DNA of 64,000 bases from positions 1 through 64,000 of IMG/VR virus record IMGVR_UViG_3300032241_003073; one strand, 5' to 3'. This DNA is from a virus. The position numbers and the translations under genes are program-made. Shown piece after piece: positions 6,890 to 55,668 of this stretch. Positions within the stretch are counted from its first letter, which is position 1, and every line of letters starts with the position of its first letter. The notes under the pieces are model-generated. The model was not told the origin of the DNA and did not search any database. It saw nothing but the letters and a program-made list of their open reading frames with translations.

Positions 6890-6921
6890 AATAAAAAAAC
6901 TCCTAAAAAAATTAGGAGTTT
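6890..6921 (-). terminator. Rho-independent terminator of the tRNA-Leu gene
   Basis: On the minus strand, right after the tRNA 3' end: AACTCCTAA, a short A/T loop, TTAGGAGTT, then a run of T. The nine-base stem with a T tract is a classic intrinsic terminator and marks the tRNA-Leu as a single-gene transcript. Confidence 0.8.
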
Positions 6922-6923
6922 AG

Positions 6924-7213
6924 TCGCCTCGGTGGGAATCGAACCCACACTCCGGTTTCCCAGAAACGGATTTTCTTACCACTACGACTTTCGTCGCCTC
7001 AAAAATGAGTTTGTGGTCTGGACTATGCCTTCACCATATCTTGCGATTTAGGTGGATGCCGTCTAGTCTCTACACCTTCCTATTTCTAGGCTTGGCTCGG
7101 CGTTGCCATTTGAAAGGTTTCACCGAATTTGACATCATCCCACCAGAAGTTTCCTATCTGATGGCTCATTAGGTAGACAAGTCCGTTGCGTCTGCCAGTT
7201 CCGCCACGAGGCG
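6924..7213 (-). tRNA. tRNA-Leu (anticodon UAA) interrupted by a group I intron
   Basis: The 5' exon (7213-7179, 35 nt) and 3' exon (6974-6924, 51 nt) join into an 86-nt class II tRNA. The acceptor CGCCTCG pairs perfectly with CGAGGCG; the anticodon stem is ACGGA/TCCGT with loop CTTAAAA, giving anticodon UAA; the long variable arm is a 5-bp stem closed by GAAA; the T arm is GTGGG-TTCGATT-CCCAC. The discriminator base is A and CCA is not encoded. The loop only closes correctly when 204 nt are removed between U34 and A35. It has its own TTGACA promoter upstream and terminator downstream. Confidence 0.9.
6975..7178 (-). ncRNA. Group I self-splicing intron in the tRNA-Leu(UAA) anticodon loop
   Basis: A 204-nt intron beginning after a U (5' exon ends GGACTT) and ending in G, as in group I introns. 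Core pieces visible on the minus strand: the P3 strands GATGATGTC and GACGGCATC, the P7 halves in GTAGAGACTAGACGG and GCATAGTCCAGACC, a P8 hairpin CACC...GGTG between them, P4-P6 in TTCGGTGAAACC...GCCGAGCCAAGCC, and P9-type hairpins CTCATTTTTGAG and CGACGAAAGTCG. An internal guide GAGCC shortly after the 5' site can pair with the exon end, with G opposite the splice-site U. No homing endonuclease frame. The position U34/A35 is the same as in cyanobacterial and plastid tRNA-Leu introns (subgroup IC3). Confidence 0.9.
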
Positions 7214-7225
7214 TCAACACATATA

Positions 7226-7253
7226 ACTATATCACATTATTTTAGAATGTCAA
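7226..7253 (-). promoter_or_regulatory. Promoter of tRNA-Leu
   Basis: Consensus TTGACA (7253-7248), 16-base spacer and TATAGT (7231-7226) on the minus strand, with AATGTGA just before the -10 box. Transcription would start a few bases before the tRNA 5' end at 7213. It overlaps the last codons of the gene at 7250-7447. Confidence 0.75.
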
Positions 7254-13506: not shown

Positions 13507-13556
13507 TCTAATTATTTCACTAATTTTTTCCAGTTTTCCTGTTCGGACATATAAAG

Positions 13557-13631
13557 TGGGCTGTCTCAGAGTCGAACTGAGTTCTCATGTTCTTCAGACA
13601 TGCGATAAATGACCGCACTAGCTCACAGCCC
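13557..13631 (-). tRNA. tRNA-Phe (anticodon GAA)
   Basis: A 75-nt gene with acceptor GGGCTGT/ACAGCCC, anticodon stem CATGT/ACATG with loop CTGAAGA (anticodon GAA), a 4-nt variable region and T arm CTCAG-TTCGACT-CTGAG. The D arm region is longer than normal and does not form the usual 4-bp stem; a GCG/CGC pairing is possible. CCA is not encoded. Its 5' end overlaps the end of the gene at 13618-13920 by 14 bases, so it is processed from a common transcript. Confidence 0.8.
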
Positions 13632-13920
13632 AAACAATCTCTTTAACATCAGACGATGGATCGCAGTCATAAACTACGGTTGTAAAATTAGATTCAGAAA
13701 TGACATAAATCATTCCTTCAAAATCATCGTCGGATTTTTTATACGCAGATTCATCACGATATAGGAAAAATTCATTTTCGAGAGAAATATCATTGGTATA
13801 AGGTATCGCAACATCATCATCCACCCCTTGATACCACATATTTTTCCATTTTTTGAAACAAATCTCGACAATATATTCTTTTGAAAGATTTGTCAAAATA
13901 TCAATGCCGCCTATTTCCAT
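13618..13920 (-). CDS. Small unknown acidic protein
   Basis: A 100-residue protein (MEIGGIDILTNLSKEYIVEICFKKW...) with many Asp/Glu residues and short beta-like stretches (EGMIYVISESNFTTVVYDCD). No motif known. Its stop codon lies inside the tRNA-Phe gene, so RNA processing of the tRNA must destroy or follow translation of this message. It lies between the tRNA cluster and tRNA-Phe in the same orientation. Confidence 0.6.
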   Translation of the reverse strand: MEIGGIDILTNLSKEYIVEICFKKWKNMWYQGVDDDVAIPYTNDISLENEFFLYRDESAYKKSDDDFEGMIYVISESNFTTVVYDCDPSSDVKEIVWAVS

Positions 13921-13941
13921 TATTATTTTCCTAAAAAGTGT

Positions 13942-14128
13942 TTAATCGCATCTTCCTTCGCATATCGTTTTTAATTCGTCGTTAACCATTCCAGATATTG
14001 CCCACTTTGGTAATTTTAAAGACCAAGCAAGACGAATACTTGCAACCCATATCTACAATGCCTTCTTTTCCAGGCTCAGTGCAGCCTAGAATAAAAGCAC
14101 CAACAATTTTCACTTCTTCTTTTTTCAT
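13942..14128 (-). pseudogene. Small gene with a single-base frameshift
   Basis: The frame from ATG 14128 gives MKKEEVKIVGAFILGC, then GIVDMGCKYSSC, and ends at 13982. The alternative frame after about codon 28 gives ASIRLAWSLKLPKWAISG and goes on to ICEGRCD, ending at 13942; this looks far more protein-like than the first-frame tail. One extra base near 14043 would join the two into a protein of about 61 residues. Either a broken gene, a sequencing error or a frameshifted one. The two CxxC-like halves (GCTEPG and CEGRC) hint at a metal site. Confidence 0.5.
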
Positions 14129-14157
14129 TTTTTAATTATTTTCTGAAAACAAGGGAG

Positions 14158-14244
14158 CGGAAGGCTGAGGTCTCGATCCCCAAACCCGTTAGGATTCCAA
14201 CCGTTTTCAAGACGGTGTTGGCACGCCAGTCCAATTAACCTTCC
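14158..14244 (-). tRNA. tRNA-Ser (anticodon UGA)
   Basis: An 87-nt class II tRNA. Acceptor GGAAGGT/GCCTTCC (last pair T-G), anticodon stem ACCGT/ACGGT with loop CTTGAAA, anticodon UGA, a long variable arm (TCCTAACGGG region), and T arm GGGGATCGAGACCTC. The discriminator base is G, as expected for serine. No encoded CCA. Confidence 0.88.
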
Positions 14245-14251
14245 AATTTAA

Positions 14252-14334
14252 TGGGCAGAGAGGGATTCGAACCCCCGAACTCATAAGAGACCTGATTTAC
14301 AGTCAGGTGCATTTAGCCACTCTGCCACCTGCCC
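14252..14334 (-). tRNA. tRNA-Tyr (anticodon GUA)
   Basis: An 83-nt class II tRNA. Acceptor GGGCAGG/TCTGCCC, anticodon stem CCTGA/TCAGG with loop CTGTAAA (anticodon GUA), a long variable arm, T arm GGGGG-TTCGAAT-CCCTC and discriminator A. No encoded CCA. Spaced 7 nt from the downstream Ser(UGA) gene. Confidence 0.9.
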
Positions 14335-14350
14335 ATTATTTTTCCAAAAG

Positions 14351-54819: not shown

Positions 54820-54852
54820 AATTGTGATATGAAATTTTATAAGGACTTTCAA

Positions 54853-55668
54853 ATGAAAGATAAAGATCCGTTGGGTGATCGAATGAAGGGTTATGAAAAA
54901 CAATACGATGGGAATTTAATGGATTTACTTCCCATTTGTGCAAGAATTGATGGAAGGTGCTTTCATTCTTTTACTGCTGGTCTAAATAGACCTTATGATT
55001 TAGGCTTGCAAAAAATAATGATTGAAACAACAAAATATCTCATAAATGAAACCAATGCTCTTATTGGATATACTCAATCAGATGAAATTAGTTTGATATG
55101 GTATCACGACAAATCAGAGAAAAGTCAATTGTTTTTTGGTGGAAGAATAATGAAATTGAACAGCATGTTGTCCTCGATGGCGACAGCTTTTTTCAATAAA
55201 AATTTATCTAATTTTATCCCATCTAAATCTGATAAAATGCCAATGTTTGATTCTAGGATTTGGCAAGTTCCAAATAAGACGGAAGCTGCCAATTATTTGT
55301 ATTGGAGAGAAGCTGACGCAATTAGAAATTCCATCAGCATGGCGGCTCAACATTATTATTCTCACAATCAATTGCATAAAAAAACTTCTTCTGAAAAGAA
55401 AAAAATGCTTTTAGAAAAAGGAGTGGTCTGGGAAAATTACCCAGACCATTTTAAAAAAGGTTGTTATTTGAGGAAGTCTTTGTTTAAAAGAAAGTTCACA
55501 TCAGAAGAAATTGAAAAATTGCCTTTGAAACATGAAGCGAGATTAAATCCAGATTTGTTAATTTCTAGGTGTGAAGTGTGTGAAATTGAAGACATTCCTT
55601 TATTTAAAAATATTTCTAATAAAAAAGAATTTATTTTTGATTTAGATTTTCCCTTAATTAAGGATTGA
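54853..55668 (+). CDS. Thg1-like 3'-5' RNA polymerase (tRNA 5'-end repair)
   Basis: A 271-residue protein; start chosen at ATG 54853 because of AAGGACTTTCAA, giving the normal MKDKDPLGDRMKGYEKQYD opening. Catalytic motifs are ICARIDGRCFHSFTAGL (first metal ligands) and IGYTQSDEISLIWYH (second), as in the tRNAHis guanylyltransferase superfamily. Bacterial and phage members are Thg1-like proteins that add missing 5' nucleotides to truncated tRNAs. It could repair tRNA damaged by host defence nucleases or finish the tRNAs encoded here. No usual C-terminal extra domain. Confidence 0.85.
   Translation: MKDKDPLGDRMKGYEKQYDGNLMDLLPICARIDGRCFHSFTAGLNRPYDLGLQKIMIETTKYLINETNALIGYTQSDEISLIWYHDKSEKSQLFFGGRIMKLNSMLSSMATAFFNKNLSNFIPSKSDKMPMFDSRIWQVPNKTEAANYLYWREADAIRNSISMAAQHYYSHNQLHKKTSSEKKKMLLEKGVVWENYPDHFKKGCYLRKSLFKRKFTSEEIEKLPLKHEARLNPDLLISRCEVCEIEDIPLFKNISNKKEFIFDLDFPLIKD

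What the first reader, a model, noticed from the sequence alone, without database searches (positions are those of the whole stretch)
6924..7213. Group I intron in a phage tRNA-Leu(UAA) at the cyanobacterial/plastid intron site
The tRNA folds only when 204 nt are removed between U34 and A35 of the anticodon loop; the removed piece has group I P3/P7/P8 core strands, starts after a U and ends with G, and has no homing endonuclease. The insertion point is the one used by cyanobacterial and plastid tRNA-Leu(UAA) introns. A tRNA-borne group I intron in a phage genome is unusual; it could show horizontal transfer of the whole tRNA gene, and the clean promoter and terminator suggest it is expressed.
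Basis: partly seen in the sequence, partly recalled or inferred. Interest (0 to 1): 0.85.

Follow-up and report, generated by a model that had tools for sequence, protein, structure and literature searches.

The report
Self-splicing intron in phage leucine tRNA
A virus of bacteria carries a leucine transfer-RNA gene split at its anticodon by a small, probably self-splicing RNA intron; the intron type is well known in bacteria and chloroplasts, but a 2014 review said phage introns sit only in protein genes, and this search found the same arrangement in more than a hundred viral sequences.

Summary
Confirmed. The minus strand at 7213-6924 holds a complete tRNA-Leu(UAA) gene split by a 204-nt group I intron (7178-6975) exactly between U34 and A35. 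Rfam Intron_gpI scores 60.4 bits (cut-off 50). The spliced exons fold as tRNA-Leu(UAA). All 47 tested P2-P9 pairs form in the window; 29 show compensatory changes across 24 relatives. A near-consensus promoter and a terminator flank the gene; the host contig is a T4-like myovirus. It is not an isolated oddity: at least 112 IMG/VR contigs, two huge phages (735 and 595 kb) and the isolate Agrobacterium phage Atu_ph07 carry such an intron at the same site, and 31 viral contigs have the matching intronless site. Phages sharing the window's tail sheath include both intron-bearing and intronless tRNA-Leu(UAA) genes. The site is the cyanobacterial/plastid one, but the best tree puts the intron beside betaproteobacterial tRNA-Ile(CAU) introns (99/91), and cyanobacterial introns are its least similar relatives (about 61% identity). 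An AU test does not exclude a cyanobacterial link. The family is known; the setting (phage tRNA genes) appears overlooked: a 2014 review placed all phage introns in protein genes. Splicing is inferred, not shown.

The parts
7226..7253 (-). sigma-70-type promoter: -35 TTGACA (7253-7248), 16-nt spacer, -10 TATAGT (7231-7226)
   Evidence: 11 of 12 consensus matches, TG before -10; sequence
7179..7213 (-). 5' exon of tRNA-Leu(UAA), ending C32-U33-U34
6975..7178 (-). group I intron, 204 nt, follows U34, ends with omega-G (6975)
   Evidence: RF00028 60.4 bits at 7188-6998; unique splice solution; covariation
6924..6974 (-). 3' exon of tRNA-Leu(UAA), A35 to discriminator A73; CCA not encoded
7165..7181 (-). 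P1: exon C-U-U (7181-7179) plus intron G1-U2 pair with 7169-7165 (A-U-G-A-G); U34 forms the U.G wobble with 7167
   Evidence: read from sequence; the GAG is invariant in alignment A1
7140..7164 (-). P2 hairpin with GAAA tetraloop (7153-7150)
   Evidence: pairs checked; 9 of 10 pairs with double changes among relatives, only 68% of cells paired
7131..7136 (-). P3 5' strand (pairs with 7055-7058 and 7062-7063)
   Evidence: the four variable pairs all covary, 100% of cells paired
7097..7126 (-). P4 (7126-7121 with 7102-7097) enclosing P5
7075..7095 (-). P6 (7095-7094 with 7076-7075) and P6a with GAAA loop
7064..7068 (-). P7 5' strand GACUA (guanosine-binding helix), pairs with 7025-7021
   Evidence: 100% of cells paired, A-U/U-A compensatory change in 6 of 24; motif unique in window
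7055..7063 (-). P3 3' strand (GA + CGG bulge + CAUC)
7032..7054 (-). P8 hairpin, GCAA loop, with CCUAA(A)...UAUGG resembling the 11-nt tetraloop receptor (receptor match from memory)
   Evidence: sequence; 100% of cells paired
7021..7025 (-). P7 3' strand UAGUC
6978..7017 (-). P9.0/P9 domain: ACCAC/GUGGU helix (7017-7013 with 6982-6978) and CGAC-GAAA-GUCG hairpin (6996-6985)
   Evidence: all four pairs of the CGAC/GUCG hairpin have double changes, 100% paired
6897..6921 (-). intrinsic terminator, 10-bp stem then T run

Best explanation
This is a phage-borne tRNA-Leu(UAA) gene, transcribed as a single-gene unit from its own promoter to its own terminator, whose anticodon loop is interrupted by a compact (204 nt), endonuclease-free group I intron of the tRNA (IC3-like) kind. 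The pre-tRNA is inferred to self-splice by two guanosine-dependent transesterifications: P1 places U34 opposite the internal guide GAG, P7 binds the guanosine cofactor and then omega-G, and U34 is joined to A35. The product is an 86-nt tRNA (CCA added afterwards) reading UUA, the commonest leucine codon of the genes sampled (38% of Leu codons). The intron is most likely a neutral passenger of a family that recurrently occupies this site in bacteria, plasmids and phages, moved within phages by recombination with intron-bearing relatives, with occasional help from an endonuclease in ORF-bearing members. Shown: sequence, structure, covariation, site, distribution, empty alleles. Inferred: splicing, charging, use in translation, route of spread.
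For: RF00028 60.4 bits. Spliced exons are tRNA-Leu(UAA), unique splice solution. 47/47 pairs in the window are standard; across 24 relatives 92% of cells are paired against 28-42% for slid controls, and 29 pairs have double changes, none of 500 shuffles as high. At least 112 IMG/VR contigs have the same intron-in-Leu(UAA) arrangement, as do LR756511, LR756501 and isolate Atu_ph07. Empty allele: 31 viral contigs with the 28 bases GGCAGACGCAACGGACTT|AAAATCCGTT uninterrupted. Tail-sheath relatives: G003/G004/G006 have an intronless tRNA-Leu(UAA), G026/G027 an intron-bearing one. Promoter and terminator. UUA usage. HNH ORF in the LR756511 intron. T4-like genes: tail sheath, sheath stabilizer, baseplate hub, head-tail adaptor.
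Against: No transcript or splicing data exist here. P5 of the window is short (2 bp, no clear L9 receptor). The intron's nearest relatives are only 77% identical, so direct donors are unknown. Recombination as the route is inferred; reverse splicing would leave the same trace.
Confidence: 0.92

Rival explanations
1. Dead intron: the ribozyme has decayed and the phage tRNA-Leu is a pseudogene that is never matured.
For: No experiment shows splicing; P5 is short.
Against: All 47 tested pairs are intact in the window, the window keeps every column that is invariant among the 23 other aligned introns, the tRNA exons are fully paired, and a strong promoter and terminator are kept.
Confidence: 0.05
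2. tRNA-Tyr(GUA) with a 202-nt intron, as ARAGORN's intron mode proposes.
For: ARAGORN -i output.
Against: Needs broken anticodon-stem and variable-arm pairs; excluded when U-before/G-end and a full stem are required; the same artefact appears in 14 relatives; a separate intact tRNA-Tyr(GUA) exists at 14251-14335.
Confidence: 0.01
3. The intron and tRNA came together from a cyanobacterial host (or plastid lineage) by transfer of the whole gene.
For: Same tRNA and same insertion site (literature knowledge; cyanobacterial loci L134, L143, L178 and others).
Against: Lowest core identity of all groups (mean 61%); cyanobacterial introns form a separate 100/100 clade and the window groups with betaproteobacterial Ile(CAU) introns 99/91. 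The AU test does not formally reject it (p 0.27).
Confidence: 0.06
4. The intron has a phage-serving role, for example shielding the anticodon loop from host anticodon nucleases until splicing, or timing tRNA release.
For: Wide occurrence in phages at an anticodon-loop position; phages are known to fight anticodon nucleases (general knowledge).
Against: The same introns sit in bacterial chromosomes and plasmids; intronless alleles are common in related phages; no direct evidence.
Confidence: 0.07

Closest known systems
Betaproteobacterial tRNA-Ile(CAU) group I introns (the Azoarcus sp. BH72 kind, IC3)
   Same: Core up to 75% identical; GAAA loops in P2 and P9; sister group in the careful tree, 99/91.
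   Different: They split a CAU tRNA after position 36, not tRNA-Leu(UAA) after 34; chromosomal.
Cyanobacterial and plastid tRNA-Leu(UAA) (trnL) group I intron, IC3
   Same: Same tRNA, same U34|A35 site, same overall ribozyme architecture.
   Different: Core only about 61% identical, separate 100/100 clade, usually longer; largely vertically inherited in cyanobacteria/plastids (literature).
Alphaproteobacterial tRNA-Leu(UAA) introns, including one on a Bradyrhizobium plasmid and one on pCTX-M3
   Same: Same tRNA and site; about 67% identical.
   Different: Chromosomal or plasmid-borne; often longer.
Other phage tRNA-Leu(UAA) introns (112 or more IMG/VR contigs, LR756501, LR756511, Atu_ph07)
   Same: Same tRNA, site, length class (mostly 196-213 nt), mostly no ORF; up to 77% identity.
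   Different: Most fall in clades separate from the window; LR756511 carries an HNH ORF.
Phage group I introns in protein genes (td, nrdB, DNA polymerase, capsid)
   Same: Self-splicing group I core in phages; capsid introns of KT997847 and HTVC120P match the window core at 94% (87 nt) and 77%.
   Different: Inserted in protein-coding genes, often with endonucleases.

Membership tests
Group I catalytic introns (RF00028) | Covariance-model score above the family cut-off | tested here: met
   60.4 bits vs 50
Group I catalytic introns (RF00028) | P3-P8/P4-P6 core with P7 pseudoknot supported by covariation | tested here: met
Group I catalytic introns (RF00028) | U.G wobble at the 5' splice site and terminal omega-G | tested here: met
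   sequence, splice solution
Group I catalytic introns (RF00028) | Guanosine-dependent self-splicing | not testable with these tools
   needs an in vitro or in vivo assay
tRNA-Leu(UAA) introns at the cyanobacterial/plastid site | Insertion exactly between U34 and A35 of tRNA-Leu(UAA) | tested here: met
   empty alleles
Cyanobacterial/plastid trnL intron lineage | Groups with cyanobacterial introns in a tree | tested here: inconclusive
   best tree places it elsewhere (99/91); AU p 0.27 does not exclude it; no plastid sequence was included
Subgroup IC3 | Subgroup-specific peripheral elements and a subgroup model score | not tested
   no subgroup model available; grouping with Azoarcus-type introns is indirect support
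Mobile (homing) group I intron | Encodes a homing endonuclease | tested here: not met
   no ORF in the 204-nt intron; a relative in LR756511 has an HNH ORF

The most novel reading that the evidence does not exclude
Phage tRNA genes are a large, overlooked reservoir of tRNA-type group I introns and a main vehicle that carries them between bacterial lineages and between tRNA species, so that the shared U34|A35 site in cyanobacteria, proteobacteria and plasmids partly reflects phage-mediated spread rather than only vertical descent.
Probability: 0.2. Interest if true: 0.8.

Novelty: new member of a known kind. Interest (0 to 1): 0.52.

Why it matters
A 2014 review states that all phage introns known then lie in protein-coding genes despite many phage tRNA genes (PMC3984707). 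The data here show tRNA-borne introns in at least 112 viral contigs, in the isolated jumbo phage Atu_ph07 (whose paper counted tRNAs with tRNAscan-SE and never mentions an intron, PMC6102473) and in huge phages. Intron-bearing and intronless alleles within one phage group, and in cyanophages, make intron gain, loss and donor identity directly testable. Practically, tRNA counts and codon-supply analyses of phages can miss these genes because standard tRNA finders are not designed for group I introns (PMC8450103).

Tried and rejected
Whole-window Rfam scan at gathering settings missed the intron, so absence in such a scan means little. ARAGORN intron mode gave tRNA-Tyr (rejected). A first quick tree was not trusted: its search missed better trees in the clade tests, so it was replaced by a careful tree without long branches. 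Search for the window's exact exon sequences in other viral contigs found none, so whole-gene versus intron-only transfer could not be decided. The Dda-like helicase gave no relatives in viral contigs; the tail sheath did. An initial P3 register taken from the Rfam alignment was dropped for one that pairs fully in the window and in 100% of cells for the four variable pairs.

Full report
WHAT IS THERE. On the minus strand, 7213-7179 and 6974-6924 are the two halves of a tRNA-Leu(UAA); 7178-6975 is a 204-nt insert. Rfam Intron_gpI matches 7188-6998 with 60.4 bits against a cut-off of 50 and is the only such match in the 98,314-base record. Default ARAGORN sees no tRNA here; spliced, it is tRNA-Leu(UAA). 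When every pair of splice sites with U before and G at the end is tried, with a full anticodon stem and U33 required, one solution remains: U34|A35. ARAGORN's intron mode suggests tRNA-Tyr instead, an artefact also seen in 14 phage relatives.

STRUCTURE. I wrote down P2-P9 by hand, including the P7 pseudoknot; all 47 pairs are standard in the window. On 24 tRNA-Leu(UAA) introns (23 from phages and viral contigs, one from a plasmid), 92.0% of cells pair (28-42% when partners are slid by 1-3 columns), 29 pairs show changes on both sides, and no shuffle of 500 reaches the observed values; the structure was partly read from the same sequences, so the slide control flatters it somewhat. P3 (its four variable pairs), P4, P7, P8 and P9 are 100% paired, with compensatory changes in each; P2 is less regular (68%). 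The window also has GAAA loops in P2 and P9 and a CCUAA...UAUGG motif in P8 that resembles the 11-nt tetraloop receptor (the last from memory).

CONTEXT. The contig is a T4-like myovirus: tail sheath, sheath stabilizer, baseplate hub, head-tail adaptor, NrdA/NrdB, SbcC/SbcD, Dda-like helicase. The tRNA stands apart from the Phe/Ser/Tyr tRNAs at 13556-14335, with its own promoter (TTGACA-16-TATAGT) and terminator. UUA is the commonest leucine codon (38% of Leu codons in 17 sampled genes), so a UAA-anticodon tRNA is plausible cargo.

DISTRIBUTION. blastn found the same gene structure in huge phages LR756511 and LR756501 and in isolate Atu_ph07. A Leu-directed pattern hit the limit again. Testing all of these loci, 112 contigs give tRNA-Leu(UAA) after removing an intron at U34|A35, mostly 196-213 nt long. 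Of 15 long intron-bearing records, 6 match a terminase family and 4 (one of them not among the 6) the phage tail sheath family; IMG/VR may still include some cellular contamination.

EMPTY SITES. Thirty-one viral contigs have the window's 28 bases around the splice site uninterrupted. Among contigs sharing the window's tail sheath, G003, G004 and G006 have an intronless tRNA-Leu(UAA), while G026 and G027 have an intron-bearing one. Intron-bearing contig L053 has exons about 90-94% identical to intronless cyanophage tRNA-Leu genes. The intron therefore appears to be gained and lost within phages.

ORIGIN. In a careful tree of 150 introns the window is sister to betaproteobacterial tRNA-Ile(CAU) introns (99/91), cyanobacterial introns form one clade (100/100) elsewhere, and phages appear in several places (at least 5 changes forced by starred branches). 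Mean core identity is 70% to phage Leu introns, 67% to alphaproteobacterial Leu introns and 61% to cyanobacterial ones. AU tests do not reject grouping with cyanobacteria (p 0.27) or with near phage introns (p 0.36), so the placement is a preference, not a proof.

MOBILITY. The window intron has no ORF. A relative in LR756511 encodes an HNH protein inside the intron, and capsid-gene introns of two marine podoviruses share the core, one at 94% over 87 nt, which suggests that cores move between tRNA and protein genes.

LITERATURE. Hausner et al. [quoted passage not shown] tRNAscan-SE 2.0 was not designed to detect group I introns (PMC8450103). The Atu_ph07 paper reports 33 tRNAs and never uses the word intron (PMC6102473). 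I found no paper reporting phage tRNA group I introns, but the library lacks most subscription journals and all preprints.

VERDICT. Real, very probably functional, a new member of a known intron family in a setting that the review literature describes as empty but that turns out to be common.

Noticed in passing
window 54829-55668 (+): Thg1-like tRNA-His guanylyltransferase (PF04446, 105 bits) in the same phage; Atu_ph07 also has one according to its paper. A phage tRNA-processing gene alongside an intron-bearing tRNA.
   Followed up: partly
L009 (pCTX-M3, 1361-1659): An IncL/M plasmid carries a tRNA-Leu(UAA) with the same kind of intron beside aac(3)-IId and an AAA-ATPase gene; the plasmid collection has 1336 matching records, many apparently this copy. 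Its intron is closest to one from Enterovirga (Alphaproteobacteria) in the quick tree.
   Followed up: partly
L006 (Gordonia phage Daredevil, 1340-1651): tRNA-Lys(UUU) with a 238-nt anticodon-loop group I intron, near the phage integrase gene in an isolated phage; not annotated.
   Followed up: no
L007 1450-1630 and 2159-2339: Two group I introns (78.0 and 76.9 bits) lie at the capsid genes of a deep-sea podovirus; the first shares 94% over 87 nt with the window's tRNA intron core.
   Followed up: partly
L002 (LR756511) and L238 (Bacilli MAG): tRNA-Leu(UAA) introns of a huge phage and a Bacilli bin both encode similar-looking HNH-type proteins, a possible homing endonuclease for the tRNA-Leu site.
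   Followed up: partly
L139: One bacterial contig has two copies of the intron signature within 500 bases on opposite strands; only one lies in a callable tRNA.
   Followed up: no
G027 (loci L359, L362): A 245-kb sheath relative has two different group I introns, one in tRNA-Leu and a second (90.7 bits) outside any callable tRNA.
   Followed up: no
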